This document shows positions 20,889-39,491 of a DNA stretch of 64,000 nt, one piece after another (positions within the stretch are counted from its first letter, which is position 1; each line of letters opens with the position of its first letter). The notes under the pieces were generated by a model. It was given only the letters and a program-made list of their open reading frames with translations. It ran no database searches and was not told the origin of the DNA. Origin of the DNA: Halorubrum aethiopicum. Its GTDB lineage: Archaea > Halobacteriota > Halobacteria > Halobacteriales > Haloferacaceae. Position numbers and translations under genes: made by a program. The stretch covers positions 1,798,001 through 1,862,000 of the forward strand of contig NZ_LOAJ01000001.1 in the NCBI RefSeq assembly GCF_001542905.1, read 5' to 3'.

Positions 20889-22546
20889 GCGTCGACATGC
20901 CCTCGACGCCCGATGCGACGATCGGGACACTTCCCGATCCGCGCCTCGAGGAGCGCGTCGCTCCCCGGCCCGCCGCACATGGGGCGGCCGTTCAGGCCGT
21001 CTTCAACGACGCGGCTCGAGACCTCCCCGTGTACTCGGCGGTCCACCAGCTGTGGTACGACGTCGTCGGCGATCGCGACCAAGAGCCCGGCGTCGTCCTC
21101 GAGGTCGACCACGACGATCTCCCGTGGCTCGAGGCTCCGACGCCCGACCGCGAGTGGGTCGTCGTCCTCTCCTCGAGTCGATGGAAGGCCGGCACCGGGA
21201 CGGGAGATGACTACTCGGCGTACTACAAGTACGACCTCACGCTCCGCGAGCGCGACGAGAACGGAGACCTGTACAAGACCGGGAAGGCGTGTTCGCTCCG
21301 CGTCGTACCACAGTTCTCCGATCTCAACTACAAGGACGGGAACAGCCTCACGCTACAGTACGGCGAGGGAACGCTCGTGCGCTGTTCGACGACGTGGGCC
21401 GATACCGCCGACGAGGTCGAGGGACAGATGCTCGATGTCCTCGAGCGCGTCCTCGACGTCGACCGCGGCCGGCTCCTCACCGATCGCGACGCCGACTCTC
21501 GGCGCATCGCGAAAGCCGAGGCGCACCATCGGTTCGATATCGGGTGGAAGCGCCAGGTCGTCGAGACGATCGACCAGACTCGCGAGCTGATCGCGTACGG
21601 CGGCATGTCCGAGATCGAGGCGCACCAGCTCCGTCAGCGCGAGGGATACCTCGAGGCGCTCCTCGACGCCGATCGCTGGCACCTCCTCGGATTCGAGCGG
21701 ACGACCTACGACATCGAACTGAAATGCTACCAGGCCGCCGGCTGGGCCGACATTCCGCGGGAAGACCCGGCGCACCATCCGAAGCTCGAGGCGTCGTTCG
21801 CCGGCGTCGACGGCGACGGAGCGCTCCCGCACGTCGACGACTGGGAGGAGGTCATGTCGGTGCTCCGGTCGATCGTCTCGGCTCACCTCGACTGGTCCGG
21901 CGTCGGTCGCGACGAGCTCGTCGCCGACGACTATCAGCCCGGTCCCGCGAGCCCGGAGTACCGGTACCGCCACCCGGCCGGTCGTCGCGAGCAACTCCGT
22001 GAGCGCTTCGAAAGCGTCTCCACGGAGATCCACCGCGAGGCGTTGAAGGCTAACACGCGCGCGGTTTACGACATCCTCCGCGTCGTCGCGACCGAGTCCG
22101 GTGCGTCCTACGATACGCTCGAGGAACGGACGGGGCTCGCCCGGTCGACGATCCGGTACCACGTGACCCGGCTCGTCGACGTCGGCGTCGCCGAGAAGGT
22201 CTCGAATCCGGTGCTCGTCGTGTTCCCGTCGCTCGCGGTTCTCGAGGAGGCCGAAGACATCCTCCGGACGATCTACCCGGACGACCAGGTAGACGACATG
22301 AAGGAGCGCGCCGAGAAGCGGCGCGACCGTCGCGAGGAACGCGACGATCCGGGCACCGTCGACGACCAGGAGGAAAGTGACGACCAGGCCGACGAGGCCG
22401 GCGACGGAGATCGTGGTCGTTCCGAGTGGGCGTACTTCGAGGACCTCTCGTTGAAGCCGCACCAGCTCGCGACCGCGCTCGAGCGCGAGTACCTGGACGG
22501 TGACGAGGTCCGCGTGCGGACGGATCGTCGGACCTGGGTCGAGTAG
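20885..22546 (+). CDS. Probable replication initiation protein with winged helix (553 aa)
   Basis: 553 residues. The N-terminal ~370 residues are of unknown fold with conserved-looking aromatic motifs (WYDVVGD, YSAYYKYDLTL, WKRQVVETIDQTRELI). A clear winged helix lies at about 390-445 (ASYDTLEERTGLARSTIRYH, then VTRLVDVGVAEKVSNP), followed by a highly charged KR/ED linker and a short C-terminal domain (LKPHQLATALEREYLDGDEV). Large proteins with a C-terminal winged helix, unlike rolling-circle Rep, are known as replication proteins of betapleolipoviruses such as SNJ2. Size, position in an early operon and lack of another Rep support that role here, as inference. A terminator follows. Confidence 0.6.
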   Translation: MSVDMPSTPDATIGTLPDPRLEERVAPRPAAHGAAVQAVFNDAARDLPVYSAVHQLWYDVVGDRDQEPGVVLEVDHDDLPWLEAPTPDREWVVVLSSSRWKAGTGTGDDYSAYYKYDLTLRERDENGDLYKTGKACSLRVVPQFSDLNYKDGNSLTLQYGEGTLVRCSTTWADTADEVEGQMLDVLERVLDVDRGRLLTDRDADSRRIAKAEAHHRFDIGWKRQVVETIDQTRELIAYGGMSEIEAHQLRQREGYLEALLDADRWHLLGFERTTYDIELKCYQAAGWADIPREDPAHHPKLEASFAGVDGDGALPHVDDWEEVMSVLRSIVSAHLDWSGVGRDELVADDYQPGPASPEYRYRHPAGRREQLRERFESVSTEIHREALKANTRAVYDILRVVATESGASYDTLEERTGLARSTIRYHVTRLVDVGVAEKVSNPVLVVFPSLAVLEEAEDILRTIYPDDQVDDMKERAEKRRDRREERDDPGTVDDQEESDDQADEAGDGDRGRSEWAYFEDLSLKPHQLATALEREYLDGDEVRVRTDRRTWVE

Positions 22547-24523: not shown

Positions 24524-24847
24524 TTACGCAGCCACTCCCTCAAGCCAGCCGAGGAGGAGCTCCAGAACCCAGCGCCCGACCGTGTCGTAGACCGTGCGGC
24601 CCGCACCCAGCGCGTCGCCGACGATCTCGCCGACCGGCGGTTCCCAGTACCCGAGCGCGACGAGCGCTAACAGCGTCACGACGACCGCCACCGCGACCGT
24701 CGCCGTCGACGACGCCGCGCCGACTGCCGCGCCGCCGATCGCCTTGTACCGACGATACCGGAGCAGGACCACCACACCGATGATGGCGATAAACAGCGAC
24801 TCCCCGACGTGATCGCCGAGGAAGCCGATGATGAGTGGGTCAGCCAT
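24524..24847 (-). CDS. Small membrane protein at the end of the envelope operon
   Basis: 107 residues with three hydrophobic stretches (LFIAIIGVVVLLRY, a long ATVAVAVVVTLLALVAL, and a C-terminal amphipathic VGRWVLELLLGWLEGVAA). It overlaps the end of the 1431-residue gene by eight bases and is the last gene of the operon. Likely a virion- or envelope-associated membrane protein. Unrecognised family. Confidence 0.7.
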   Translation of the reverse strand: MADPLIIGFLGDHVGESLFIAIIGVVVLLRYRRYKAIGGAAVGAASSTATVAVAVVVTLLALVALGYWEPPVGEIVGDALGAGRTVYDTVGRWVLELLLGWLEGVAA

Positions 24848-27800
24848 CGTCGTCCTCTCGAGCGTCGATCTCGAGGCGCGTCACGTTGTCCGGCGTCGAC
24901 GCCTCCGCGCGCCACGCCGACAGTGCTCGCCAGCCGAGCAGCACCGCGCCAACCACGATGATCACGCCCGCCTCCTCGGCGATCGTCGTGAACGTCTCCG
25001 GCGCGAGCTGCCAGATGCCCAGCACTGCGACTACCGCGGTCGAGCCGGCCCAGATCCGGAAGTCGAACGAGTCGAACTGCTGGAGCACGAGGAACATCCC
25101 GACTGGGACGCTCCCCGCCGAGATGATCAGCCGCTCGGTGGCGGTGAACGCCCCCGACGTGAGCAACCACACCCCACCGCCGAGCGTCAGCGCGGCGAGC
25201 ACGATCTCGTTGTCGAAGACGCGCTCGAGGAGCCCGCCCGCTCGTGACGCCACGCCGATCGCCGCGTCCGCGGCCGCATCGCTGCGGGTCCCCTCGTCGA
25301 ACAGCCCCGTCCGCCGCGAGATCACGGCGAGACCGAAGAGTCCGGCGAGTCCGAACACGAACACGTCAGTTCCCGGCAGCAGGCCTCGGAGCCCGCTAAA
25401 GCCGTTGAACGGTGACGAACTCGTCACCATCGGACCACCGCCACCACCGCCGACGAACCCGGAACTCCCGCCGCCTCCAGAGCCGCCAGCGGTACCGTCG
25501 TCCTCGCGGAACTGGATGATCCGCGTGCCTTCCGTGTCCTCGGTCGACAGCGTGAGCGGACTCGATGCGATCCCCTGATCGAGGACGATCTCGTCGGTTT
25601 CGTCCCACAGGACGTACGGTTGTCCGTCCGTGGCGTTCAGATGCGTCACGTCGTAGTCGTCTCCGGTCCGCTGACCCGGACTGACGCGGTAGACAGGCTC
25701 CGTCTCGGAGAGCCGGCCGTCCGGGATGTCTACGTCGATCGCGCCGGTGTTGACATCGAACGCGAGCGGGAGCGTCCGGATCGCCGTCTCGCCGTTATCC
25801 GGCGCGTTCGGGATCCGCATCTCGTTCACGCCGCGTCCCGTGAATTGGGTCGCTTCGGAGCTGTCCCACGACGTATTCGCGAGATAGTGGAGCTGGCCGC
25901 CCTGTGCCGTCTCCCCGACACGGAGGTAGACGTCGTCTGACGGGTTCGAGAGCCGGATTCTGGAATTCAGGTCCTCGCCTTGGTCGGTCGGCTCGAGGAC
26001 GGTCATCTCCGCGCCCTCGACCTGAACCTTCGAGCCGTTCGCCGTGACGGTCGTGGTCCACCCACCTTCGACATCGCCGAGGTCGACGACGACCGAGCCG
26101 TTCGTCAGCTCGTAGTCGGGCGTCGGCCGCGGGCTCGGCGTCGTCCCGCTCTCGTCGGTGTACTCGACGGAGACATCCCGCACGGCGATCACGCTGTCGG
26201 AGGCCCACGGGATGGTGAGCGTCGCGTTCGACGTGTTCTCCGTCCACGACTTCGAGACCGAGTACCGCTCGGAGAAGGCCTCAGCGGAGTACGAGACGGT
26301 GCGGCTCTCGCGGATGTCGTGTGAGAGGCTCACGCCGACTTTCGGGATCGGTGATCCTGCGATCAGCGAGCTGTCGTTTAGCGCGATGTCGACTGTGTTC
26401 GTTCCTTCCTGGATCCACGCATCCTCTCCGCTCAGTGTCACCGTTTCGCCTTCGGCGACGACGCCGTCGTGCGACATCGCGTTGCCGTTGAGCGAGACGG
26501 TCGGGTCGATCGTCTCGGTCACTTCGGTCCACGAGACAGCGGTGTCGACATCGCCGCCGGTGGAGATGTCGAGCGACTGTGAGCCGGTCGAGAGGTCGAC
26601 CGACTCGGAGTACGTCTCGCCGTCGCCGAGGACGCCGGCGTATGAGACGGTCTGTCCGTCGACCGTCACTGTCGGGTCCTCGGTCGCGGTGACGGCCGTC
26701 CACGAGGCGTCAGCCGTGACTTCCGAGCCACCGTTCGTCGAGACACTCACCGAGTTCGAGCCGGGGGAGAGATCGCCCCCGGAGAGAGTGACTGTCTCTC
26801 CTTGTGAGAGGATACTCGAGTGGGAGACCGTCGACCCGCCGAGCGTGACTGACGGGTCCTCGGTCGCGGTGACGGCTGTCCACGACGCGTCGGCGGTGAC
26901 TTCCGAGCCGCCGTTCGTCGAGACGCTCACGGAGTTCGAACCGGGAGAGAGGTCACCACCAGAGACCGTCGTCGTCTCTCCCTGTGTGAGGATTCCGTTG
27001 TAGGACGCGGTCCCGGAGCCGAGAGAGACCGACGGGTCCTCCGTCGCCGTCACCTCCGTCCATGAGGCGTCATAACTGAGCCCGCTCGATGCCCCGGAGT
27101 AACTCGCGGAGATCGATTCGGACCCTCTCGAGAGGTCCACGTCCCGAGTGATCGATCCGTCGAGCGGTCCCGAGTGCGTTATCGTTGACGACCCCACATC
27201 GACGGAGAGATCGGTCGGAGCGTCCGTCTCCGTCCATGATACATCATAATTTACTGACCCATCCACGCTAATCGGGATCGTGTTTGAACCGTCCGAGATC
27301 GGGACTGTCGTCGAGCCAGTCGGGGAGATCGTGGTGCCGTCGACAGTCGCCTCACTCGGTGCTGCGAACGATAAGACAATATCTCCGCCGGAGCTTCCGT
27401 CACCGATGCGGCTTGCGCTATCACCCACCGCGTACATCCGAACGGTGAACGGTCCAGAATCTAATGAAACTGGTAAGTCGCCCGAGTCGAACGTTTCGGT
27501 CGTAATGCCCGACCCCGAGCTTGTCTCGATTGTTTCGGTGGTTCCGAGTGATTGGCCGTCCTGGAGAATTTCAAAGTATTGTGCCGGTTCACTACCATAA
27601 ATGTCATTATTATTCAGGTCAACAATAATTGAATCAAGCTGTCCAGATGCCTCTGCGGTAAATTCTAAGTCGGTGGAGTCGTCTGTAGCAACGTAGACTT
27701 GGTCAAATCTGCTGATGCTTTGCGCCTGTGGGTTCGATAGGTCGACCGTCGCGTCGGAGTGACTCACACTCCCGCCGACTCCCGAGATCGTCGCCGAGCC

Positions 27801-29135
27801 CGAACCCGTGATCGTCCCGGATTCACTCCGCGACTGTGTTGTGGTGTCTCCCGTGAGCGTGACCGACTCCGAGGTAGGAGCCTGGTTCCCACCGATGTCG
27901 AATGAGTCGCTCGCACCGTCCGCGAGCGACCCGCTCGTCGACCCGCTCGACGTCGTCTCGACCCCCGTGAGCGTGACCGACTCGCCCTCCGCGTCGACGT
28001 TGCCGCCGACCGAGACGCCCGTGCTTGAGCCGTCCGAGAGCGTTCCAAGCGAGGCCGAGCCCGACGCGGTCGTCTCGACGCCGGTCAGCGTCACGCTCTC
28101 GTCGGTCGCCGGCTGGTTCCCACCGACATCGACGGTCGTGCTCCCGCCATTCGAGAGTGTGCCGAGCGAGGCTGAGCCCGACGCAGTCGTCTCAACACCC
28201 GTCAGCGTCACCTCTTCGTTCCGCGGCGCAGTCGTCCCGCCGACGGTCGCGGTAAGTGACTCGCTTCCCGAAACGGTCGACGAGGTCGACATCTGTTTTG
28301 TGTTCTCGACGCCGGTCAGTTCGACCGAGAGGTTCTCGCCGCCGTTCGGTGCTTCGTAGGTGATCGTGTCGCCGTCGGTCGCCGACTCGGCGCTCACCTG
28401 GAGCTCGCCGTCGAAGGTCACCGTGTTGCTCGAGAAGCCTTCGACGTAGAACGCTGCCGAGCCGCCCTGAACGCGGATCGGAGCCGAGTAGCTCCCGTTC
28501 GTCTCGTGGTCGATGTAGGCACGAGCCGGCACCTGTCCGAGATGCTGTTCGAACCACGACGTGTCGATCGCCACCCAGCGACCATCGTGCGTGCGGTCGT
28601 CCTCGAGAATGATCGCCGGCTCGCCGTCGACGACGCCCGTTGTCACAGCCATCGTCTGACTACCGGCCGAGGTCTGAATTTGCTTCGGCGCGGCCGGTGC
28701 CGTACCGGGTGCCTCGACCCGGCTCGTCACCACCTGCCGATACGTCGGCTGCTCGTCACCGGTATCGGACTCGTCAGCTGTGCCGCTCGGTTCCAATGTT
28801 TCGGGCGTCGCCGACGGTGTCTCGTCATCGACCGTCGTGTTCCCGGTCTCGGGTTCCACGCTGGGACCGGTGTCGCCGCTTCCGAACGGCGCGGCCGGCA
28901 CCGCGATCGCGGCCACGAGCAGCACGCCGGCGAGCAGCAGCGGCTTCACCGCACCCGCCGGTACGTGGATGCTCGAGACCGTCCCGCGGAGCTGCGGCGC
29001 GATCTCGTCGACCGACTGTGAAATCGCGCCTCGAACCCGCGCCAGGTACGAGACTAGCGTCGCTTTCAGCCACGCGATCAGCTCGCGATATCGTTCCTCT
29101 TCGTCGTCGGCGTCCGTATCCGTGTCATTAGTCAT
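24840..29135 (-). CDS. Giant repeat-rich surface protein with C-terminal membrane bundle (1431 aa)
   Basis: An acidic cytoplasmic start and an amphipathic helix precede a membrane segment at about 62-84. The long exported region begins with a Thr/Glu linker. One array of ~38-residue repeats follows (GESVTLTGVETTASGSASLG type, about 280-455), then a distinct AT-richer domain (about 480-630), then a second array of ~60-residue Ig-like repeats (LSPGSNSVSVSTNGGSEVTA type, about 640-930), then further beta domains. After a Gly-rich stretch, about four membrane segments end the protein (about 1245-1415). It resembles an adhesin or host-recognition protein. It sits directly after the ATPase gene, overlapping it. 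Confidence 0.8.
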   Translation of the reverse strand: MTNDTDTDADDEEERYRELIAWLKATLVSYLARVRGAISQSVDEIAPQLRGTVSSIHVPAGAVKPLLLAGVLLVAAIAVPAAPFGSGDTGPSVEPETGNTTVDDETPSATPETLEPSGTADESDTGDEQPTYRQVVTSRVEAPGTAPAAPKQIQTSAGSQTMAVTTGVVDGEPAIILEDDRTHDGRWVAIDTSWFEQHLGQVPARAYIDHETNGSYSAPIRVQGGSAAFYVEGFSSNTVTFDGELQVSAESATDGDTITYEAPNGGENLSVELTGVENTKQMSTSSTVSGSESLTATVGGTTAPRNEEVTLTGVETTASGSASLGTLSNGGSTTVDVGGNQPATDESVTLTGVETTASGSASLGTLSDGSSTGVSVGGNVDAEGESVTLTGVETTSSGSTSGSLADGASDSFDIGGNQAPTSESVTLTGDTTTQSRSESGTITGSGSATISGVGGSVSHSDATVDLSNPQAQSISRFDQVYVATDDSTDLEFTAEASGQLDSIIVDLNNNDIYGSEPAQYFEILQDGQSLGTTETIETSSGSGITTETFDSGDLPVSLDSGPFTVRMYAVGDSASRIGDGSSGGDIVLSFAAPSEATVDGTTISPTGSTTVPISDGSNTIPISVDGSVNYDVSWTETDAPTDLSVDVGSSTITHSGPLDGSITRDVDLSRGSESISASYSGASSGLSYDASWTEVTATEDPSVSLGSGTASYNGILTQGETTTVSGGDLSPGSNSVSVSTNGGSEVTADASWTAVTATEDPSVTLGGSTVSHSSILSQGETVTLSGGDLSPGSNSVSVSTNGGSEVTADASWTAVTATEDPTVTVDGQTVSYAGVLGDGETYSESVDLSTGSQSLDISTGGDVDTAVSWTEVTETIDPTVSLNGNAMSHDGVVAEGETVTLSGEDAWIQEGTNTVDIALNDSSLIAGSPIPKVGVSLSHDIRESRTVSYSAEAFSERYSVSKSWTENTSNATLTIPWASDSVIAVRDVSVEYTDESGTTPSPRPTPDYELTNGSVVVDLGDVEGGWTTTVTANGSKVQVEGAEMTVLEPTDQGEDLNSRIRLSNPSDDVYLRVGETAQGGQLHYLANTSWDSSEATQFTGRGVNEMRIPNAPDNGETAIRTLPLAFDVNTGAIDVDIPDGRLSETEPVYRVSPGQRTGDDYDVTHLNATDGQPYVLWDETDEIVLDQGIASSPLTLSTEDTEGTRIIQFREDDGTAGGSGGGGSSGFVGGGGGGPMVTSSSPFNGFSGLRGLLPGTDVFVFGLAGLFGLAVISRRTGLFDEGTRSDAAADAAIGVASRAGGLLERVFDNEIVLAALTLGGGVWLLTSGAFTATERLIISAGSVPVGMFLVLQQFDSFDFRIWAGSTAVVAVLGIWQLAPETFTTIAEEAGVIIVVGAVLLGWRALSAWRAEASTPDNVTRLEIDAREDDDG

Positions 29136-30366
29136 CGGCAGGCCCCCCCTGTGATGTCACTTCCCCTCGCGCGCGGGCGTAAGGCTGTGAGAGCGAAATC
29201 TTCAGCCAGCGACTGTCATCTTCCGGAAATTCGTGGATATCGTCCCACGATATCGGGTTGAAGCCGCCTTCCGTCCAGAAGATACAGTGACCCACGTCTC
29301 GCCTCGAGAGGAGATCGTGCTTCATCGGGATCTGGTTGAACCCGAGCGGCGGCCGATCGTTGTTCTCTTTACACGGGTTCGCCGTGCCGTCGGGCATGTT
29401 CACACGCCACTGGATGGTTCGTCGGATCTTCGAGTGGAGATTCTCCTCGTGATGGGCGAGGAAGAACAGCGAGAAGTGGAACTTCCGTGAGTCCGCCATC
29501 ACCCGGCGGAGTGCGTTGACCTTCTCGTACGTCTCGTGACGGTCCGCTCGAACGTTGTCGGGAGCGAAGTCCGCCGTCTCGTCGAAGATCAGCGAGACCC
29601 AGCCGTACGGCCCGTACTCGAGCTTCGCAATACAGTACGCGAACCACCAGTGAACGAGTGGCGTCGCGTCGTCTCCCTCCGTGGCGTTCCACTTCGGCGT
29701 CCACTCGACGGGCTGTGCCATGTAGTCGGACTCGGCCATGATCTCGCCGCAGCCGCTGAACGACGGGTCCGGATAGACGACGTTGAACGTCCCCGGCTTC
29801 AGCTGCTCGTTGACGTCTCGTGGGTCCTCGTAGTAGATCACCTCACGGACGATCTCTTCCAAGTCCGCGCTCTCTCCGTCGAGATCCTCCGTAATGACCT
29901 TCGGTTTCCACGTCGCATCGACCTCCGCGTTCGCTGGGAGGAACAACCGTGTCCACGGCTTCAGTGGAAGCCACTCCGAGCGCGTCGGCGCTCCGCGCCA
30001 GACGACGGCCTCGTTGTTGACCTCCATGAGGCGAGTCGCCCAGTAGAGCCCCCACGTCGACTTTCCGGAGCCTTTCTCGCCGACTGCGAGCCAGTTCGTC
30101 CCGCCGACGTGGCTCGTTCCGCGGTCTTCGGTCCGCGTCTCGTGAACGAGACAGTTCGGGTACGGATCCCAGTGGTAGTCGTTCGCGAACGGTTCGATGC
30201 CGAACCGACGGCGGATGTTGTCCGCGTCGGTGTTCTTGTTGTGCCAGCCCGTAGGCTTCGGCTCTGGGTCCGGGAAGTCCGGATGCGTCTGCTTGGTGTT
30301 CTCGCCCCATGCGACTCCGTCTGGCGGTCGACTCTGACGGCCGCCGTCTTGATGTTCTAAGCTCAT
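29128..30366 (-). CDS. P-loop ATPase of the envelope operon (412 aa)
   Basis: 412 residues with Walker A at 96-104 (VGEKGSGKST) and Walker B at about 252-260 (WVSLIFDETADF), then a sensor-like SRKFHFSLFFLAHHEE. Such stand-alone ATPases accompany envelope proteins in pleolipoviruses and resemble FtsK/HerA-type DNA pumps or VirB4/VirD4-type motors. The first 80 residues are polar and Pro-rich. The stop overlaps the start of the giant surface protein; the start lies two bases after the previous gene. Probable energy source for DNA loading or envelope assembly (inference). Confidence 0.75.
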   Translation of the reverse strand: MSLEHQDGGRQSRPPDGVAWGENTKQTHPDFPDPEPKPTGWHNKNTDADNIRRRFGIEPFANDYHWDPYPNCLVHETRTEDRGTSHVGGTNWLAVGEKGSGKSTWGLYWATRLMEVNNEAVVWRGAPTRSEWLPLKPWTRLFLPANAEVDATWKPKVITEDLDGESADLEEIVREVIYYEDPRDVNEQLKPGTFNVVYPDPSFSGCGEIMAESDYMAQPVEWTPKWNATEGDDATPLVHWWFAYCIAKLEYGPYGWVSLIFDETADFAPDNVRADRHETYEKVNALRRVMADSRKFHFSLFFLAHHEENLHSKIRRTIQWRVNMPDGTANPCKENNDRPPLGFNQIPMKHDLLSRRDVGHCIFWTEGGFNPISWDDIHEFPEDDSRWLKISLSQPYARARGEVTSQGGPADD

Positions 30367-30368
30367 CG

Positions 30369-31136
30369 TTATCCTTTCTGGAACTCTCCGGGGTCTTCGT
30401 CGGTCTCTACGTCCGACCGCTCACTCCCGTTGAGCGACCGTGCCGCGCTGAAGAACGACGGCATGATGATACCGATCGCGAACCGATAGCGGACCGACAG
30501 CGCCTCTCTCGACTCCGTATCGAGAAGTGCCTCGAGCATCACGGGCGACGAGACGATCCGTTCCATCAGCCGCTCCGGTTTTTCTCCGTTCGTCGGAGCC
30601 GACAGGCTCCGGACCCAGCGCCCGAGCGCCTCTCGGTCCTTGAAACCAACCCACAAGCTGTCGAGCGCGCTCGCTTGGGTCTCGTCGAGGATCTTGAACG
30701 CGGGACGGTTCAGCGGGTTCTTTTCGTAGCCGTCGGCCGTACCCTCACGATCGGAATCAGAATCGATGGTTTCCGTTGCCCGTTCCCTGAACTGGCGGTA
30801 CGCCAAGTCACACGTCTCGTCAAGGCGCTCGACGAGACGACGTCGGACGTACTGTGATTCGGGATCTGAAGCATCGACCAGATGTTCCAACACCCCAGCC
30901 AGTGGGAGCATGTGCTGCGGTTCGAGGACCGCCCCCACGTGCCCGAGCGTCCGGATACCTGCCGCTTGGTACCACACGAGCGCCTCTCGATACGTTCCGA
31001 ACCCGTCGCTCAGTGGACGTATTGGCGGGTTTCGGTGGTTGTCGCCATCGTACAGTAGCCGATCCTGATCACGGTCGAGCACGTCGAGCGCCCGCCGCGT
31101 CGTTCGTCGATCAGGTGTAGACTCGTCAGTCGTCAT
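30369..31136 (-). CDS. Soluble helical protein of the envelope operon (255 aa)
   Basis: Start at ATG 31136 (MTTDESTPDRRTTRRALDVL), which overlaps the end of the 617-residue gene by 11 bases; a longer frame upstream is only the shadow of that gene. Almost all-helical and charged, without membrane segments. GYEKNPLNRPAFKILDETQA in the middle and an acidic tail. Position between the large membrane protein and the ATPase suggests a cytoplasmic or internal partner. No family recognised. Confidence 0.7.
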   Translation of the reverse strand: MTTDESTPDRRTTRRALDVLDRDQDRLLYDGDNHRNPPIRPLSDGFGTYREALVWYQAAGIRTLGHVGAVLEPQHMLPLAGVLEHLVDASDPESQYVRRRLVERLDETCDLAYRQFRERATETIDSDSDREGTADGYEKNPLNRPAFKILDETQASALDSLWVGFKDREALGRWVRSLSAPTNGEKPERLMERIVSSPVMLEALLDTESREALSVRYRFAIGIIMPSFFSAARSLNGSERSDVETDEDPGEFQKG

Positions 31137-32979
31137 CGTCACCTTCCGCTTTCCGCGTGTCTTCGTCGCTATCCGCCAGTGCCCCGTCCGTATCCAAGCC
31201 AGAGCCGGCGTTGGCGTCCATCCCGAGCACGTCGAGATCCATGCCGACCTCTCCCTCCGAGAGCTGCTGTACGAGCGTCTTGTTCCGACGGCTCTCGATC
31301 TCACGGGCCTCCAGGGCCGTCCGGGATCGCTCGTTCCACGCGACTTCCTCGAGCTCGTCGATCGTCTTCGCGTCGGCGTGCTCGCTCTGGAGCACCGTCA
31401 GCGACGCGTCGGCCGTGATGTCGTGTCGCGGTGCCGGTTCGAAGCTGATCGAGCCGTCGACCGCCTCGTAGCTCTCGATCGCGAGGAGCACGACGCCGAT
31501 GAACGCGCCGACGAACGGGACGTTCGCCACCGTCCCGCCGACGTGCCAGCCGATGAGCGGCAGCGCCAGCACGCCGATCGTCAGCAGCGCGTAGAGCCCT
31601 CGCGTGATCGGCGAGAGTTTCTCGCCGTCGGCTGGCTTGGGAAGCCGATGCCAGACCGGCATCCGCCGCCGGAGGTGTGCCGGCCGGTGGTCGACCGCAG
31701 TCTCACCCTCCGGGTCGACGTACACCTTCTGCGAGGCCGACCCCGATACTCGGACCCGCGTCCGAAGATCGGAGAGGTCGAGCTTCGCGGCGCTCGAGAA
31801 CAGCCTCGCGAAGAACGGCCGGATCCCCTTCTTCGGGAGGAGCCGTCCACCCGTCGGTGCGCGGACCGTCGGAAGCAGCTTCAGGTCCTCATACAGCTCA
31901 TCGAAGTAACCGTCGTCGTCGAGCCCGACCCTGTCGGTCACGCTCGAGGCTGGCCCACTCCCTCCGTCCGGCACCGCATCCGGGTCGGCCTTCTCTTCGG
32001 ACTCGCCGCGCCGGAGGCTCACCGCCTCGGTGAGTTCTTTCCGCTCGAAGGCGATCCGTTCGAGCGGGGGCGACATCCGAAGGCCGCCGCCGTAGGCGAT
32101 CGGGAGCAGCGACATCCCCATCAGGATGTCGAGGTGCTCGACCACGACCGCCAGCTCGTAGTACAGTCCCGCGAGAGCGAGCAGGATGCCGACACCGGAG
32201 ACGAAGCCCCACGTCCCGAGCGAGTACCCCGGACCGCGGCCGGTTCGCTTGAGCGTCGCTCTCGCGCCCGAGAGACCGATCACGATCGCTCCGATCCCCG
32301 GTAGGATCGCGGTTCTGAAGACGTACCACCAGGCGTCCGCCTGCGTGTCGATCGCGACCTGCTGGGACGCCGGGGCTGAGGCATGGCCGAACCGCCAGCG
32401 CGCGCCGTCGACGAGCTCGCCGTCGCGTTCGAGCCACATCGTCGCCTCGACGCTCTCGTTGTAGTGGGAGTTCAACGCGATCGGCGCGGTCGCGTAGCCC
32501 GACTCGACGTCGACCGTCACGCGCTGAACTTCCTGGTCGGCCGCGTACTCGACGGTCGTCCCGTTCACGGTCTGACTCGCCGGCTGCCAGTAGACGATCA
32601 CCGCCTCGTACTCGCCAGTCGACTGCGAGCCGAACACGGTCGAGTAGAGCTCGATCTGGTCGGTGTTCAGCGTCGTTCCGCGTTCGAGGTGGACCGGCTC
32701 GTTCTCGAGCGGCCCGGCCGGCGTGTACCGGATCGCCATCGCTCCGCTCGGCGGCGAGCCGCCCACGTAGCGGACGGCAGGCGGAGCCGCTGCCGGCTGG
32801 TTCCCGCCCGTCCGCAGTTCCGAGATCTCGAACGGGCCGGGCGGCTCGAAGTCGACACTGCTGTTCTCGACCTGTGGTGCTGGTGCCGCGGCCGCCATCG
32901 CGGGCATCGCCGCCCCGAGCGCCGACAGCACACACAGGACTGCGAGGCTTGCCGCGGCGACCGCGGCACCCCGAGTCAT
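31126..32979 (-). CDS. Signal-peptide membrane protein with large cytoplasmic domain (617 aa)
   Basis: A clear signal peptide (about 1-31, ending MPAMAAAAP) leads into a ~190-residue beta-rich ectodomain with N-glycosylation-type sequons (NGT, NES). A group of membrane segments follows at about 220-305. A charged cytoplasmic region leads to two more membrane segments (about 463-500, GLYALLTIGVLALPLIGW) and an acidic C-terminal tail. The layout is that of a polytopic envelope scaffold with both outer and inner domains. It precedes the soluble helical protein and the ATPase, so these three may form one machine. Confidence 0.75.
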   Translation of the reverse strand: MTRGAAVAAASLAVLCVLSALGAAMPAMAAAAPAPQVENSSVDFEPPGPFEISELRTGGNQPAAAPPAVRYVGGSPPSGAMAIRYTPAGPLENEPVHLERGTTLNTDQIELYSTVFGSQSTGEYEAVIVYWQPASQTVNGTTVEYAADQEVQRVTVDVESGYATAPIALNSHYNESVEATMWLERDGELVDGARWRFGHASAPASQQVAIDTQADAWWYVFRTAILPGIGAIVIGLSGARATLKRTGRGPGYSLGTWGFVSGVGILLALAGLYYELAVVVEHLDILMGMSLLPIAYGGGLRMSPPLERIAFERKELTEAVSLRRGESEEKADPDAVPDGGSGPASSVTDRVGLDDDGYFDELYEDLKLLPTVRAPTGGRLLPKKGIRPFFARLFSSAAKLDLSDLRTRVRVSGSASQKVYVDPEGETAVDHRPAHLRRRMPVWHRLPKPADGEKLSPITRGLYALLTIGVLALPLIGWHVGGTVANVPFVGAFIGVVLLAIESYEAVDGSISFEPAPRHDITADASLTVLQSEHADAKTIDELEEVAWNERSRTALEAREIESRRNKTLVQQLSEGEVGMDLDVLGMDANAGSGLDTDGALADSDEDTRKAEGDDDD

Positions 32980-33158
32980 CGAGCGCCCTCCGTAGCGATG
33001 TACTGTTCGGCGAGTACAGCTGCCACGAGTGTCAATCCGATACCGACGAGAAGCGCGTACGGCCCAAGGTGCGGAAAGAGGGCTTCGGAGGTTGCTTTGA
33101 TCGCACTCACGATCATCTCGATCGGCGCTATCAACAGCGCTACGAACGCCGAGATCAT
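32976..33158 (-). CDS. Small membrane protein, paralogue group A (60 aa)
   Basis: MISAFVALLIAPIEMIVSAI, then HLGPYALLVGIGLTLVAAVL: two hydrophobic stretches. The second, beginning with GPYA, matches the C-terminal segment of the 163- and 153-residue proteins of the same operon (FGPFALIAGTGVVLGSFW; FGPLAYPIGIGVVVGSFW). It overlaps neighbours on both sides by four bases. Probably a shortened member of that family and an envelope protein. Confidence 0.65.
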   Translation of the reverse strand: MISAFVALLIAPIEMIVSAIKATSEALFPHLGPYALLVGIGLTLVAAVLAEQYIATEGAR

Positions 33159-33352
33159 CGGTTACCCCCTACGTCGACGACCTCGGCACCGTTGTCCGAC
33201 TCGCCAGCTCGGTCCCGCTTGATCGCGACCAGAATCGCCACGATCCCGAACAGCCCGATTGCGAGACCCGCGCTAGGTCTCACCAGTGTTGCTCCAGCTC
33301 CCATCGAAAGGCCGAGACCGAGCGCCGCGAGTTCGTTGTTCGTGAACGTCAT
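33155..33352 (-). CDS. Small membrane protein (65 aa)
   Basis: Two hydrophobic segments (ELAALGLGLSMGAGATLV and GLAIGLFGIVAILVAI) followed by KRDRAGE and an acidic tail, so the C-terminus is probably cytoplasmic. Start and stop overlap neighbouring genes (ATGA). Confidence 0.6.
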   Translation of the reverse strand: MTFTNNELAALGLGLSMGAGATLVRPSAGLAIGLFGIVAILVAIKRDRAGESDNGAEVVDVGGNR

Positions 33353-33582
33353 CGAGCGCCCTCCTTTTCGAGTTCGTCGAGTGCGGCCGACTCGAGATAC
33401 GCGTCAGCAGCGCCGAGCCCGAACGCGAGTAGGCCACCGGCGATCACCCAGTTTTCGAGGAGCGTCGACGGGCCGGCGGCGAACGTCTGGACCGCGAGGT
33501 AGAACCCTATGAGTGCGAGTCCGAGACTCACCGCGATACGGCTCGGTGTCGGCTCGTCGTCCCACAGTCCCGAGACCGCCAT
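33349..33582 (-). CDS. Small membrane protein (77 aa)
   Basis: Polar start (MAVSGLWDDEPTPSR), two hydrophobic segments (IAVSLGLALIGFYLAVQTF, WVIAGGLLAFGLGAADAYL) and a charged end (LDELEKEGAR). Overlaps both neighbours. Envelope component by context. Confidence 0.6.
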   Translation of the reverse strand: MAVSGLWDDEPTPSRIAVSLGLALIGFYLAVQTFAAGPSTLLENWVIAGGLLAFGLGAADAYLESAALDELEKEGAR

Positions 33583-33836
33583 CAGGCGTCACCCCACACA
33601 GCCTCGTTCTCTGGCTCGGCGTCGAGCAGCTCATCGATGTCAGCGAACTCCTCTTCGCTGTGTTCGAGTGAATCCGCGAGAACTCGAAGCGCCTCTGACG
33701 GAGTATCACCTGCGCACGGTCGATCGAGTCCCTCGGCGTCGACTCGCCAGCGCTCTTCAACGCTGTCGTCGGCGCGGTTGCGTGCGTGGTACCGCTCCAG
33801 AACCAGATCGATCTCGGCATCGTCGAAGCCGGGCAT
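33582..33836 (-). CDS. HicB-like small soluble protein (84 aa)
   Basis: MPGFDDAEIDLVLERYHARN, then a strand-rich core (WRVDAEGLDRPCAGDTPSEA) leading into LRVLADSLEHSEEEF. The core pattern, a strand with a DTPSEAL helix start, is that of the HicB/partial RNase H-like antitoxin fold. No HicA toxin is next to it. It is the only soluble small protein among the membrane genes, so it may regulate the operon or be a structural reuse of the fold. Confidence 0.55.
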   Translation of the reverse strand: MPGFDDAEIDLVLERYHARNRADDSVEERWRVDAEGLDRPCAGDTPSEALRVLADSLEHSEEEFADIDELLDAEPENEAVWGDA

Positions 33837-34213
33837 CAGTCGTCACCTCCGAAGACGGCGTAGCCGATCATGAACACGACGACCCCGATCAGCAGGAACT
33901 GGACGCCCGTCAGCGACCCGAGGAACCCGCCCGTGCCGAGCGCGCCGGCGATCCCGGCGACAGCCGCGACCGCCCACCCCGGATCCGCGAGGATCGCGTT
34001 CACCAGCTCGTTCCCGTACTGGATGCCGACGCCTGCACCGAACACGCCCGCGGCAGCCGTCGACCGGAGGCCGCGGGAGGCTGCCGAGCCGGCCGTCGAC
34101 GCCGCCGAGCCCGCGGTCGAACCGGCCCGCGAAGCGGCTTCACGGCTCTCCTCGAGGCCGACGAAGTACACCAGCGCGCCGACCGCCGCGAGGCCGAGCG
34201 CGAGCGTCAGCAT
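33836..34213 (-). CDS. Membrane protein with Ala/Ser linker (125 aa)
   Basis: An N-terminal membrane segment (LTLALGLAAVGALVYFVGL), then a repetitive Ala/Ser/Gly stretch (STAGSAASTAGSAASRGL), then two further hydrophobic segments (AVAAVAGIAGALGTGGFLGS and FLLIGVVVFMIGYAVFGG). Envelope component by context. Starts inside the end of the 23-residue frame at 34207. Confidence 0.6.
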   Translation of the reverse strand: MLTLALGLAAVGALVYFVGLEESREAASRAGSTAGSAASTAGSAASRGLRSTAAAGVFGAGVGIQYGNELVNAILADPGWAVAAVAGIAGALGTGGFLGSLTGVQFLLIGVVVFMIGYAVFGGDD

Positions 34214-34278
34214 CGGTGCTCACCTCCATCTCTCTGCGTGCGATTCCACTCGGTTCGTCCGCTGTCGTTGTGTGTCAT
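34207..34278 (-). CDS. Possible 23-aa coupling ORF
   Basis: ATG 34278 overlaps the stop of the upstream 92-residue gene, and its own stop at 34207 overlaps the start of the next gene (ATGCTGA). The product is polar (MTHNDSGRTEWNRTQRDGGE). It fills the only gap in this part of the operon and may mainly carry ribosomes across it. Confidence 0.35.
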   Translation of the reverse strand: MTHNDSGRTEWNRTQRDGGEHRC

Positions 34279-34553
34279 AGTTCTCGATCGATGTTGCTGT
34301 AGATCTGCTGTCCCAGGTACGCCAGGAACACCACGCCGGCGGCGACCACGGCCCATTCGCCCGCGTTCGACGGCGGGAGGACCTGTGGAAGCGTCAACGC
34401 GGACAGTGAGATCACCGAGAACAGCTGCGGCCCCGACGCGATGAGCGCGTCCGTCAGCGCCCACACGACCTCGGGGTTCAGCAGCGCGGCGATCCCGCTC
34501 AGTCCCGCGGTGAGCTGGGCGAGCGGATCCTCTGCGAGTTCTTTCAGTGTCAT
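34275..34553 (-). CDS. Small membrane protein (92 aa)
   Basis: Helical start (MTLKELAEDPLAQLTAGLSG), a central hydrophobic stretch (ALIASGPQLFSVISLSALTL) and a C-terminal membrane segment (AVVAAGVVFLAYLGQQI). Overlaps the preceding gene by four bases. Confidence 0.6.
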   Translation of the reverse strand: MTLKELAEDPLAQLTAGLSGIAALLNPEVVWALTDALIASGPQLFSVISLSALTLPQVLPPSNAGEWAVVAAGVVFLAYLGQQIYSNIDREL

Positions 34554-35047
34554 TCTGTGAGCCCTCCGAGCTGGAGGAGGTCGGCGACCACGTACACGAT
34601 CCGTCGGAAGACGACCAGCGCGACGACGATCTCGGTGGTGACGACCACGGTCACGACGATCGGCGAGAACGGACCGGCCGCTCCCGCCGCCTCGAAAATG
34701 CCGCCGTTGATCGTCCGTACCGTCGAGATCAGCGCGTCTCCGAGCGACGCCCCGACTCCGCCGATGTCGCCGGCGATCGCCACCGGAATGTCCGCGATCC
34801 CGAGCGTCTCGCCCGGTGCGTCGAACCGTGCCGGCTGCGATCCACCGAAGATCAGCAGCACGGTGTCGATGAACTGGGAAACGACGCCGAACGCGCCCTC
34901 GAGCAGCGTCGTCAGTACCGCACCGAGGATGAATCGCCGAGGATCGCTGGCGAAGTCGACGATCAGGCCGACGAAGTCGGCCAGCGGCTTCAGATCGAAT
35001 ATCCAGGTCGGAAGCGGTGACCCGCCGTCACCTCCTTGCGCGGACAT
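34550..35047 (-). CDS. Membrane protein, paralogue group A (165 aa)
   Basis: Start at ATG 35047 (MSAQGGDGGSPLPTWIFDLK), overlapping the previous stop; a longer upstream frame is arginine-rich shadow. It has amphipathic or hydrophobic helices in the first half (DFVGLIVDFASDPRRFILGA), a Gly-rich middle (IAGDIGGVGASLGDALISTV) and a C-terminal segment starting GPFSPIVVTVVVTTEIVV. The order of elements is the same as in the 153- and 163-residue neighbours, so the three are probably duplicated copies. Confidence 0.65.
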   Translation of the reverse strand: MSAQGGDGGSPLPTWIFDLKPLADFVGLIVDFASDPRRFILGAVLTTLLEGAFGVVSQFIDTVLLIFGGSQPARFDAPGETLGIADIPVAIAGDIGGVGASLGDALISTVRTINGGIFEAAGAAGPFSPIVVTVVVTTEIVVALVVFRRIVYVVADLLQLGGLTE

Positions 35048-35508
35048 CACGACACCTCCCGGATGCGGTCGATCCCGCGTCCCATCACCCAGAACGAGCC
35101 GACGACGACGCCGATCCCGATAGGATACGCGAGCGGGCCGAACTGCGTCAGCGAGAACGACCACGCACCGCGGATCGCCGCGATACCACTCCCGAAGATG
35201 ACGTCGATCAGGCCGTCGAACTCCTGCTCGAAGCCGCCGACCGCGTTCGGGTTGTTGACGAACTCCGTACCGCCGGCGAGGAAGCCGCGGACCCCGTCGA
35301 CGATTCCCGTGTAGGCCTCGGTCAGCCCGCTGATGATCGTGTTCGCACCCAGCGCGACCACGAACACGATCGAGCCGGCGATCGCTCTCCCGACGCGCCC
35401 GGCGTCGATCCCGGACGCCAGCCCGAAGCTGACGCCGTCGATCGACTCGGTCCCAGTGAGGAACGACTCCTCTTGGTCATCCGTCAGCACGTCGTCGCCG
35501 TCAGCCAC
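35047..35508 (-). CDS. Membrane protein, paralogue group A (153 aa)
   Basis: Starts at GTG 35508. An acidic N-terminus is followed by a hydrophobic helix (IAGSIVFVVALGANTIISGL) and a C-terminal segment, LTQFGPLAYPIGIGVVVGSF, ending WVMGRGIDRIREVS. The last segment is strikingly like that of the 163-residue neighbour. Envelope or virion membrane protein by context. Confidence 0.65.
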   Translation of the reverse strand: MADGDDVLTDDQEESFLTGTESIDGVSFGLASGIDAGRVGRAIAGSIVFVVALGANTIISGLTEAYTGIVDGVRGFLAGGTEFVNNPNAVGGFEQEFDGLIDVIFGSGIAAIRGAWSFSLTQFGPLAYPIGIGVVVGSFWVMGRGIDRIREVS

Positions 35509-35554
35509 CGCTCACCACCCCCGCATGCGGGTTGGGTCGCGATGGCTCGAGCAT
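35501..35554 (-). CDS. Possible 17-aa coupling ORF
   Basis: ATG 35554 overlaps the previous stop (ATGA), and the stop at 35501 overlaps the next GTG start region. The product (MLEPSRPNPHAGVVSGG) has no features. Probably maintains translational coupling. Confidence 0.25.
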   Translation of the reverse strand: MLEPSRPNPHAGVVSGG

Positions 35555-36045
35555 CAGTTCTCGTCCTCCTCTCCGTCTTCGGTGACCCCGACGTCGATCG
35601 GTCCGATCGCGGGGATGTCGGGGAACCCAGGGATCGCGAGCGTGTCACTCGTGTCCTCCTGCTGGAGGTACGTCGAGATCAGCCAGAACGAGCCCAGCAC
35701 CACGCCGGTACCTGCGATCAGCGCGAACGGTCCGAACTGTGCGCTGATCGATGTCGCCGATGTCTCGGCGGTTGCCGAGATGATACCGAGCGGCTCGAGG
35801 ATGGTCGCGTCGATGAACTGACCGATAGCGGCCGTGATCGCGTCGAGCGGTGCGACGACCAGCCCGATGATGCTCTGGATCAGGTTGATCCCGCCGGTCG
35901 CGACCGACACGAGCGTGCCGAAGATAGCGCCCTGGAGCAGCGTTCCGAGCGTTCCGTCGGCGTTGAGATACCCGATGGTGCCCGTCAGCACCGTGTTCGG
36001 GCTCGGATCGTCTCCGGACGGCAGCTCGTCGGCTGCGGACGACAT
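35554..36045 (-). CDS. Membrane protein, paralogue group A (163 aa)
   Basis: Acidic start (MSSAADELPSGDDPSPN), a first hydrophobic region (TLLQGAIFGTLVSVATGGIN), LVVAPLDAITAAIGQFID, then ISAQFGPFALIAGTGVVLGS leading to FWLISTYLQQ and an acidic tail. It matches the 153- and 60-residue proteins in the last segment and the 60-residue protein also in the APLD/APIE helix. Overlaps neighbours on both sides. Confidence 0.65.
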   Translation of the reverse strand: MSSAADELPSGDDPSPNTVLTGTIGYLNADGTLGTLLQGAIFGTLVSVATGGINLIQSIIGLVVAPLDAITAAIGQFIDATILEPLGIISATAETSATSISAQFGPFALIAGTGVVLGSFWLISTYLQQEDTSDTLAIPGFPDIPAIGPIDVGVTEDGEEDEN

Positions 36046-37499
36046 TACGACCCTCCACCGCCGCTGAACAGGCGGAACCCGACGAAGCCGGTGATCGAAC
36101 TGACGATCAGGCCGGGGACCGACAGGAGCCAGCTGATGATCCCGCCATCACCCGACGACATGACCGCCGCCCCGCCGCCCGAGGCCGCGCTCTGGATCGC
36201 CGAGACCTCGTCGTTCGTGAGCACGACGTCGTAGCTCACGACGTACGCAGTCCCTGGCGAGACGGTCGAGTCGAGCGTGATCTCGGTCGACCCGTCGTAG
36301 CTGCTCGCGACCGACGTGTAGTCGATCTCCGAGAACTCCGTGTCGTCGCTTCCCTCGGCGATCTCGACCGCCTTGTAGCGCTCCGAGGGAAGGTTCGGCT
36401 CGTCGACGAACTCCGGACCCGAGTAGCTCAGATCGAACGCGGTCGGCAGTTCGAGCCGGAACGCGATCTCGCCGAGCTGGTCCCACTGCGGGTAGTCGCT
36501 GGTCGGGCCGAACTCTGCGGACACGTCCTCGTCGTCGGTGATGTCGGACGCCTGGAAGACCGCGTCGACGGTGACGCCGTAGATCGTCGCGTCCGACATG
36601 ACCTCGTCGAACGTGTCCATGCCGGTTACGGAGTAGGAACCGCGCGGCTCAGTGATCGTCACGGTCTCGAGCTCGTCGTCATCGTCCGTGTCCTCGAGGC
36701 GCTCACCGAAAGTGAGAGCGCGCGTCCGCTCCGCGTCGAGGACGGAAACGTCCACGTCGGCGTCGCCGGAGATCGTGATCTCCTCGGTTGAGCCGAAGGA
36801 GCCGTCTCCAGTGCCTGCGACGGTGAGGTCGCCGACCTGCTGCTGGAGGACCTTCCCCTCGCCCGTGGAATTCGCGAGAACGCTGTCGTCGCTCGCGGAC
36901 GCCGCGGAGTCGTAGAGCGTGATCTCGACGTAGTCGCCGTCACCGTCGGTCAGCTGGAGCGTCGGGGTGCCCGACGCCGAATTGATGTCGGCGGCGATCG
37001 TGAGGTACGACTTCTCGCCGTCGTTCACCGAGAAGTTCGAGTAGGTCGCCGAGTCGGAGCTCGCCGAGCCGGCGTAGTTGAGCGCGTCGACGCCCGGCGC
37101 GGTCGACGACTCGCTCACGGTCGCTCCCGAGGTGGTCCACTCGCTCGAGTCGAGCGCGGACGCCGAGTTGTCCGAGCCCTCGTCGTTCTTCCGCGGGGAC
37201 TCGTTGCGGTCCGCGAAGTCGATGTTCGTCGCGGTCAGCGTAATCGGGTTGTCGTTCGACTCGTTCACCGAGGCCGGCAGAGTGGCCGGGTGGCCGGCAT
37301 CGTCGTAGTACTCGACGGCCGTGTCGAAGTCAGCGTTCGACCACTCGTCGATCGTGACCTCGGTCGCGATCTCCGGGTTCGGCGTTTTGGTGTCCTCTCC
37401 CCAGCCGATCCCGCCTGCGGCCATGATGGGCGTCGCGACCATCGACGAGAGCACGGCGAGCGCGATCAGCGCCGCGAGTCCGGTTTTCTTGATGTTCAT
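36045..37499 (-). CDS. Exported, C-terminally anchored surface protein (484 aa), spike-like
   Basis: Signal peptide (MNIKKTGLAALIALAVLSSM ... AAGG, about 1-30), a ~410-residue acidic beta-rich ectodomain with NES/NFS glycosylation-type sequons, and a C-terminal membrane anchor (GIISWLLSVPGLIVSSITGF) ending in Gly/Ser. This is the architecture of pleolipovirus spike proteins and of some plasmid-vesicle proteins. No sequence identity to a named spike can be claimed from here. It is the first large gene of the envelope operon and overlaps both neighbours. Confidence 0.7.
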   Translation of the reverse strand: MNIKKTGLAALIALAVLSSMVATPIMAAGGIGWGEDTKTPNPEIATEVTIDEWSNADFDTAVEYYDDAGHPATLPASVNESNDNPITLTATNIDFADRNESPRKNDEGSDNSASALDSSEWTTSGATVSESSTAPGVDALNYAGSASSDSATYSNFSVNDGEKSYLTIAADINSASGTPTLQLTDGDGDYVEITLYDSAASASDDSVLANSTGEGKVLQQQVGDLTVAGTGDGSFGSTEEITISGDADVDVSVLDAERTRALTFGERLEDTDDDDELETVTITEPRGSYSVTGMDTFDEVMSDATIYGVTVDAVFQASDITDDEDVSAEFGPTSDYPQWDQLGEIAFRLELPTAFDLSYSGPEFVDEPNLPSERYKAVEIAEGSDDTEFSEIDYTSVASSYDGSTEITLDSTVSPGTAYVVSYDVVLTNDEVSAIQSAASGGGAAVMSSGDGGIISWLLSVPGLIVSSITGFVGFRLFSGGGGS

Positions 37500-37660
37500 A
37501 CGACTCCTCCGTAGCTACCGCTTTCCATTCGTGTCATGAGTTTCTGAAAACAGCCGTGTTCGACCGCCAGTTCCTCGTCGATCGGGTGGTTCGCGCGGAA
37601 CTTCTCGAGGTAGTCGGCGAACGCCTCGCCGACCACGATCCCGTCAGGGAGACGGCTCAC
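37496..37660 (-). CDS. Small soluble protein ahead of the spike-like gene (54 aa)
   Basis: GTG 37660 to TGA 37496; the stop overlaps the ATG of the 484-residue gene. The product, MSRLPDGIVVGEAFADYLEK followed by FRANHPIDEELAVEHGCFQK, is a compact helical acidic protein. A further 11-codon frame overlaps its start. Likely regulatory or assembly-related; unrecognised. Confidence 0.6.
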   Translation of the reverse strand: MSRLPDGIVVGEAFADYLEKFRANHPIDEELAVEHGCFQKLMTRMESGSYGGVV

Positions 37661-38180: not shown

Positions 38181-38248
38181 ATCGGCCAGACACAGTTGCC
38201 AAAGAGAGCCAAGAGCACGGAGTTATGGTAGTTGTTCCTCAGGCTCTG

Positions 38249-39470: not shown

Positions 39471-39491
39471 TCGTGCGATCCGTGAACCGTC

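What the first reader, a model, noticed from the sequence alone, without database searches (positions are those of the whole stretch)
32976..36045. Duplicated family of envelope membrane proteins
The 163-, 153- and 60-aa proteins share a last segment (FGPFALIAGTGVVLGSFW, FGPLAYPIGIGVVVGSFW, HLGPYALLVGIGLTLV). The 165-aa protein has the same order of elements. The 163- and 60-aa proteins also share an APLD/APIE helix. Four related membrane proteins in one operon suggest subunits of one hetero-oligomeric layer or pore that diversified by duplication.
Basis: partly seen in the sequence, partly recalled or inferred. Interest (0 to 1): 0.58.

Follow-up and report, generated by a model that had tools for sequence, protein, structure and literature searches.

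The report
Triplicated membrane proteins of haloarchaeal mobile elements
A mobile DNA element in a salt-loving archaeon carries three related small membrane proteins, plus a shortened fourth, that probably build the envelope of an uncharacterised virus-like particle or DNA-carrying vesicle found across many haloarchaea.

Summary
The duplication is real. Profiles built from up to 30 orthologues show that the 163- and 153-aa proteins are homologous (hhalign P 97, score 73.5; 0 of 100 locally shuffled nulls reach the matching score). The 60-aa protein is a shortened relative of the 163-aa one. The 165-aa protein is a more distant relative, seen only with profiles. The three genes sit side by side in nearly all 31 distinct loci compared. 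The 163-aa family occurs in 65 of 391 sampled genomes of the class, 23 of 86 genera. They are the core of an operon: surface protein, trio, small membrane proteins, 617-aa membrane protein, P-loop ATPase, 1431-aa protein. It lies in an integrative element with an integrase like that of lemon-shaped virus LSV-48N and a Rep-Arvir-type replication gene. The ATPase belongs to the pTN2/PAV1 ORF375 family. No trio relative was found in the virus records tested. The surface protein is swapped between elements while the trio stays.

My reading: the trio are envelope or matrix proteins of a particle or vesicle (0.55); a DNA-transfer pore is the main rival.

The parts
36045..37499 (-). 484-aa surface protein: signal peptide, beta-rich ectodomain with a carbohydrate-binding-module-like domain (residues about 96-265), Gly-rich tail and C-terminal hydrophobic segment
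   Evidence: AlphaFold2 pLDDT 82.7, pTM 0.77; best Foldseek PDB hit HFTV1 turret 8qpg E 1.7e-5; VIA Z 10-11 to CBMs and 10.2 to the turret, tied; hydropathy; in 26 of 31 loci
35554..36045 (-). 163-aa trio member 1: helical hairpin membrane protein with acidic C-terminal tail
   Evidence: 30 of 31 loci
35047..35508 (-). 153-aa trio member 2, paralogue of member 1
   Evidence: hhalign P 97.4 to member 1; 0 of 100 shuffles; 29 of 31 loci
34550..35047 (-). 165-aa trio member 3, distant paralogue
   Evidence: 0 of 100 shuffles to members 1 and 2, not significant as a single sequence; 29 of 31 loci
34275..34553 (-). 92-aa protein, conserved next gene
   Evidence: 23 of 31 loci; no Pfam hit above cut-off
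33836..34213 (-). 125-aa membrane protein
   Evidence: 13 of 31 loci; hydropathy
33582..33836 (-). 84-aa acidic protein, window only in this set
33349..33582 (-). 77-aa membrane protein
33155..33352 (-). 65-aa membrane protein, window and L028 only
32976..33158 (-). 60-aa protein, shortened relative of the 163-aa member (matches its residues 78-129)
   Evidence: (E 1.1e-4 in a whole-genome search with the 163-aa profile)
31126..32979 (-). 617-aa membrane protein with N-terminal signal and several hydrophobic segments
   Evidence: 29 of 31 loci; hydropathy; also on pNG300 and pNYT2
30369..31136 (-). 255-aa protein between the membrane protein and the ATPase
   Evidence: 29 of 31 loci
29128..30366 (-). 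412-aa P-loop ATPase, phrog_22963 (pTN2 gene 8 family)
   Evidence: E 1.3e-15; pTN2 gene 8 hits the same PHROG with 591 bits; hhalign P 98.9 over 266 columns
24840..29135 (-). 1431-aa protein: N-terminal hydrophobic segment, long repeat-rich beta-type region, C-terminal hydrophobic segments
   Evidence: 180-nt repeat pair; 27 of 31 loci
24524..24847 (-). 107-aa membrane protein
   Evidence: 19 of 31 loci
37496..37660 (-). 54-aa small protein before the surface protein, probably first gene of the operon
   Evidence: similar gene in 15 loci, window included
20885..22546 (+). 553-aa DUF7845 (Rep-Arvir type) replication initiator with winged helix
   Evidence: PF25227 62.9 bits, cut-off 27; family described in PMC13107129 (passages)
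18773..19933 (+). 386-aa tyrosine-recombinase-type integrase
   Evidence: PF02899 above cut-off; phmmer 5.2e-76 to the LSV-48N integrase

Best explanation
The four proteins are one paralogous family of small helical membrane proteins. They are the conserved core of the structural module of an integrative mobile element. Most likely the element makes an enveloped particle, either a virus or a self-encoded plasmid vesicle. The trio would sit together in the particle membrane as hairpins and shape or line it (a matrix or envelope layer). The Gly-tethered 484-aa protein would bind host surface glycans. The 617- and 1431-aa proteins would be further surface or fusion parts, and the ATPase would move or recruit DNA. 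Shown: homology, ancient triplication, derivation of the 60-aa copy from the 163-aa group, conserved gene order, mobile-element context, interchangeable surface protein. Inferred: membrane insertion, co-assembly, particle formation, every role.
For: Homology. In one search, 15 of the 17 genomes with more than one match have a second match on the same strand within 600 nt of a first; all 15 matches with E between 1e-8 and 1e-3 are such neighbours (14) or the window's own 60-aa gene (1), so stray membrane proteins do not score. Conserved order. Mobility: an integrase like that of LSV-48N; a DUF7845 gene, the Rep-Arvir family that PMC13107129 reports in pleomorphic SNJ2, lemon-shaped LSV-48N and PAV1, and which Pfam finds here in HGPV-1, HRPV-3 and LSV-48N; the module on circular plasmids pNG300, pNYT2 and a Halosegnis plasmid and twice in one genome (G139). 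ATPase: same PHROG as pTN2 gene 8, which PMC3543421 equates with ORF375 of spindle-shaped virus PAV1 and the A3 VLP provirus. Surface protein: CBM-like fold, replaced in L040, L042-L045 and pNG300 by a protein of about 175-190 aa with a signal sequence and Gly-rich anchor, in 4 of the 5 loci with an MNIKK-type signal, while the trio remains. No Pfam domain of a conjugation system was reported in the operon proteins scanned.
Against: No particle, virion proteome or capsid match is known. Trio profiles do not match pleolipovirus proteins, LSV-48N or His1. tblastn with the ATPase and the 617-aa protein finds no phage record, and four scans of IMG/VR found no relative (pattern scans that reach mainly close relatives). 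The DUF7845 paper also lists integrative conjugative elements among carriers. The 163-aa model is poor and has no viral fold match.
Confidence: 0.55

Rival explanations
1. The operon encodes a cell-to-cell DNA transfer apparatus. The trio forms a hetero-oligomeric channel in the donor membrane, the ATPase pumps DNA, and the large surface proteins hold the recipient cell.
For: A P-loop ATPase with many membrane proteins and adhesin-like proteins; the pT26-2 core was read this way (PMC6972569 passages); integrative conjugative elements also carry DUF7845; no match to any capsid family tested.
Against: No relaxase, VirB4 or pilus domain was reported for the operon proteins scanned; the ATPase family is that of PAV1 and the A3 VLP rather than VirB4; the surface protein changes like a receptor-binding protein.
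Confidence: 0.25
2. The similarity reflects only hydrophobic helices; the proteins have separate origins.
For: As single window sequences, 165 against 163, 153 and 60 is within chance (172, 795 and 799 of 1000 shuffles).
Against: Profile scores exceed all 100 hydrophobicity-preserving shuffles for all trio pairs and for 163/60; reversed alignments and other membrane families of the same operon do not score; whole-genome hits are neighbours.
Confidence: 0.04
3. The module serves the host (cell-surface structure, adhesion, vesicle trafficking or contact-dependent antagonism) and is only carried by islands.
For: It is kept in many chromosomes: 65 of 391 sampled genomes; the 1431-aa protein looks adhesin-like.
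Against: Patchy presence within the genus, two copies in one genome, and plasmid copies; linked integrase and replication gene.
Confidence: 0.12

Closest known systems
pNG300 (Haloarcula marismortui), pNYT2 (Haloarcula taiwanensis) and the Halosegnis marinus plasmid
   Same: Same structural operon. pNG300 and pNYT2 carry the trio, 92-aa, 617-aa, 255-aa and ATPase homologues; pNG300 has an extra 106-aa protein that resembles the 163-aa one in its acidic tail (weak profile score).
   Different: These genes are listed there nearly all as hypothetical proteins; other replication genes; pNG300 has a small surface protein in the first slot.
LSV-48N, lemon-shaped virus of Haloferax (PP151251; PMC12714723, sections and passages read)
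   Same: Related integrase (5e-76) and a DUF7845 Rep gene; integrated provirus with a run of small membrane proteins.
   Different: No structural protein matches; its CDS6 shares only the Walker A stretch with the ATPase (29 columns).
pTN2-like plasmids and spindle-shaped virus PAV1
   Same: Same ATPase family (equivalence of pTN2 gene 8 and PAV1 ORF375 from PMC3543421, passages).
   Different: No other pTN2 protein matches beyond background or a P-loop stretch; PAV1 itself was not available here (one search found no record).
Pleolipoviridae (HRPV-1, -2, -3, -6, HHPV-1, HGPV-1, His2)
   Same: Plan of spike, small internal membrane protein and ATPase; HGPV-1 and HRPV-3 carry DUF7845 Reps.
   Different: Trio not related to VP3, surface protein not related to the spike by profile; only a weak P-loop match of the ATPases (P 53).
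pR1SE and apHPV plasmids in plasmid vesicles (PMC10818511, passages)
   Same: Mobile element with many surface proteins and an ATPase.
   Different: apHPV core includes a subtilisin-like protease and a VirB4-like ATPase; neither seen here. pR1SE sequence not held.

Membership tests
One paralogous family (163, 153, 165, 60 aa) | Significant mutual profile similarity beyond hydrophobicity | tested here: met
   strong for 163/153 and 163/60, weaker for 165; 153/60 alone and 60/165 not shown
One paralogous family (163, 153, 165, 60 aa) | Common fold | tested here: inconclusive
   Only the 163-aa protein was modelled, at low confidence
One paralogous family (163, 153, 165, 60 aa) | Hetero-oligomer | not testable with these tools
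   No multimer prediction offered
Pleolipoviridae | VP3-type internal membrane protein, VP4-type spike, ORF6, ORF7 | tested here: not met
   hhalign of 11 operon families against 5 pleolipovirus families; trio scores are at background
Pleolipoviridae | VP8/ORF8-type ATPase | tested here: inconclusive
   P 53, 60 columns, P-loop ATPase part only
LSV-48N-like viruses | Homologous structural genes | tested here: not met
   11 families against 18 LSV-48N proteins, none beyond Walker A
LSV-48N-like viruses | Homologous integrase and Rep | tested here: met
   Integrase 5.2e-76; both carry PF25227
pTN2/PAV1 ORF375 ATPase family (phrog_22963) | Whole-domain similarity | tested here: met
   1.3e-15 over residues 86-331; 266 columns to pTN2 gene 8
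Rep-Arvir (DUF7845) replication initiators | PF25227 domain followed by a winged helix | tested here: met
   PF25227 62.9 bits (cut-off 27), HTH_20 at residues 395-438; catalytic residues not checked
apHPV (pR1SE-like) plasmids | S8 peptidase and VirB4-like ATPase among core genes | tested here: inconclusive
   Neither domain found by Pfam in the large window proteins scanned; pR1SE not held
Spindle-shaped virus major capsid protein | Homology of the trio to His1 proteins | tested here: not met
   Best His1 hit is a different ORF at E 0.04; other spindle viruses except LSV-48N not tested

The most novel reading that the evidence does not exclude
The operon is the virion module of an undescribed group of haloarchaeal enveloped viruses or vesicle-borne plasmids. 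Its envelope is built from a triplicated hairpin protein instead of a single matrix or capsid protein, with a swappable glycan-binding surface protein and a pTN2/PAV1-type ATPase, carried by about one in six sampled haloarchaeal genomes.
Probability: 0.4. Interest if true: 0.78.

Novelty: new variant of a known kind. Interest (0 to 1): 0.58.

Why it matters
A conserved module of a dozen or so genes occurs in 23 of 86 sampled haloarchaeal genera (by its 163-aa gene), yet none of its trio, surface, 617-aa, 255-aa or 1431-aa proteins that I scanned has a Pfam match above cut-off or a convincing PHROG match. If it makes particles, a common group of archaeal viruses or plasmid vesicles has been missed by the virus catalogues searched here, and pNG300 in a type strain becomes a ready test system. 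The old triplication also shows how a hetero-oligomeric membrane coat might evolve from one hairpin protein.

Tried and rejected
Single-sequence and profile searches of the trio against Pfam, PHROGs and PDB gave nothing above chance. Relation to LSV-48N, His1, ABV (first 18 kb), pleolipoviruses and pTN2 structural proteins was tested and dropped. In one search the 165-aa profile touched HRPV-1 VP3 (E 0.0073) and the 617-aa profile touched HRPV-1 ORF6 (E 0.0063); profile-profile comparison did not support the first and put the second in a 20-column N-terminal stretch, likely signal sequence. LSV-48N CDS6 scored against the ATPase but only over the Walker A motif. The 92/77-aa match is not an independent result, because the two sets share members. 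Element ends were sought through relatives' DNA and repeats without result. Foldseek of the 163-aa model found nothing. The only tRNA call in the window lies antisense inside the 617-aa gene and looks spurious. The literature searches I ran listed no paper that I recognised as describing this module; most were seen only as listings. Halfvol2, a novel-group induced provirus of 12.3 kb with ten membrane proteins (PMC7911831 passages), was considered but not compared by sequence.
Full report
WHAT IS THERE. The window is part of a 3.3-Mb haloarchaeal genome (G000:C1:1798001-1862000); a close relative of the element lies in Halorubrum salinum. On the - strand, 37660 to 24524, runs a compact operon: 54-aa, 484-aa, 163-aa, 153-aa, 165-aa, 92-aa, 125-aa, 84-aa, 77-aa, 65-aa, 60-aa, 617-aa, 255-aa, 412-aa ATPase, 1431-aa and 107-aa genes.

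ARE THEY RELATED. I collected relatives with the 163-aa protein (28 of 170 genomes of the family), fetched 29 stretches of mostly about 18 kb, and called the three genes by position in each. With L021-L023 and the window, and after removing two duplicate places, this gives 31 loci. Profile-profile comparison, with reversed alignments and six other operon families as controls, gives 163/153 P 97.4, 153/165 P 64.7, 163/60 P 76.9 and 163/165 P 23.5. No shuffle in 100 reached the observed score for 163/153, 163/165, 153/165 or 163/60. 153/60 also exceeded its 100 shuffles, but two control pairs come nearly as close (1 of 100), so it is not counted. With single window sequences, only 163/153 and 163/60 stand out (0 of 1000 each), 60/153 is borderline (14 of 1000), and all comparisons with 165 are within chance. 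A search of 391 genomes of the class with the 163-aa profile is an independent control: 65 genomes match, in 23 of 86 genera. In 15 of the 17 genomes with more than one match, a second match lies on the same strand within 600 nt, where the 153-aa gene is; in the window genome the second match is the 60-aa gene, E 1.1e-4.

HISTORY. A maximum-likelihood tree of 89 rows separates the positions: the 165-aa group is one side of a branch (100/96); the 163-aa group with the 60-aa protein is another (95/93); the 153-aa group is not one clade. Long branches make details unsure. So the triplication predates the spread across genera, and the 60-aa protein branches inside the 163-aa group on a long branch. 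The proline at position 85 is nearly invariant in the family.

SHAPE. The 163-aa model has two long helices, 33-82 and 85-128, the second at pLDDT about 80-88 for most of its length, but the whole is low confidence (pLDDT 63, pTM 0.30) and has no viral fold match. The hydrophobic stretches are 45-78 and 104-127. A membrane hairpin is therefore inferred, not shown.

NEIGHBOURS. The 484-aa protein folds confidently outside its ends (pLDDT 82.7, pTM 0.77). Residues about 96-265 resemble carbohydrate-binding modules (Z 10-11). The best Foldseek hit in the PDB is the turret of Haloferax tailed virus 1, E 1.7e-5, but it covers part of the chain and many CBMs tie with it. Passages of PMC12494034 describe that turret domain as a proposed glycan binder. 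In five loci (L040, L042-L045) and pNG300 another protein fills this slot, with a signal sequence and a Gly-rich C-terminal anchor; in four of the five loci the signal is of the same MNIKK type. The trio does not change with it. The ATPase matches phrog_22963 (1.3e-15); pTN2 gene 8 matches that family with 591 bits and our ATPase profile over 266 columns. PMC3543421 (passages) states that these plasmid ATPases correspond to ORF375 of spindle-shaped virus PAV1 and occur in the A3 VLP provirus. The 617-aa, 255-aa and 1431-aa proteins had no Pfam or PHROG match above cut-off or chance.

MOBILE CONTEXT. Beyond the 107-aa end of the operon lie an integrase most similar to that of LSV-48N (5.2e-76 among the virus ORFs tested) and a DUF7845 protein with a winged helix. 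PMC13107129 (passages) names DUF7845 proteins Rep-Arvir: shown there to be a rolling-circle initiator in SNJ2, and found in LSV-48N, PAV1, plasmids and integrative conjugative elements. The operon lies on circular plasmids in Haloarcula and Halosegnis with other replication genes, and in two places in genome G139. Both DNA flanks that I tried are poorly conserved in the genus, so the ends were not fixed.

WHAT IT DOES. The best reading is a particle module: an exchangeable surface protein, a constant set of related envelope hairpins, further large surface proteins and a DNA-handling ATPase. It resembles the plan of pleolipoviruses and plasmid vesicles but shares no structural protein family with the pleolipoviruses tested, with LSV-48N or with His1. 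A conjugation-like pore remains open. No phage record matched the ATPase or the 617-aa protein, and four IMG/VR scans found no relative; these scans reach mainly close relatives, so absence from viromes is not shown.

VERDICT. Observation confirmed. Interpretation of duplication supported; layer or pore untested. The more important finding is the widespread, unnamed module around it.

Noticed in passing
window 36045-37499 and loci L040, L042, L043, L044, L045, L056: The surface-protein slot before the trio holds either the 484-aa protein or a protein of about 175-190 aa with a similar signal and anchor but another ectodomain.
   Followed up: partly
window 23897-24412: A 171-aa 2H phosphoesterase of the cyclic phosphodiesterase family (PF07823, 4.8e-21) lies beside the operon; possible nucleotide-signal or RNA-processing role, perhaps counter-defence (recalled idea, not tested).
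   Followed up: no
window about 38180-44500: In relatives L028, L029, L033 and L034 the DNA similar to 37.8-38.2 kb is followed within about 0.4-2.5 kb by DNA similar to 44.5 kb, so the window has several kb more there, with an ABC transporter, an AsnC-like regulator and a metallo-beta-lactamase-like gene (named by eye from the translations).
   Followed up: partly
window 16502-16556: A short sequence of about 30-54 nt is repeated, often at 85-98% identity, in many Halorubrum genomes and elsewhere in this genome; it may be the end of a small transposable element.
   Followed up: no
window 45325-46803: A 492-aa protein with pentapeptide-type repeats (30-nt spacing of repeats in the DNA).
   Followed up: no
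L056 17735-18055 (pNG300): An extra 106-aa protein between the 163- and 153-aa homologues, with the same acidic tail type; probably another copy of the family (E 0.005 with the 163-aa profile).
   Followed up: partly
window 22398-22416 and 44696-44714: An exact 19-nt direct repeat 22.3 kb apart; could be chance in GC-rich coding DNA.
   Followed up: no
window 26614-26973: A tandem 180-nt repeat (78% identical) in the 1431-aa gene, whose homologues vary from about 765 to 1466 aa between loci.
   Followed up: no
L024 and L025 (Haloarcula plasmids): The ATPase occurs in these stretches without the trio or the 617-aa protein, so it is more widely spread than the envelope module.
   Followed up: partly
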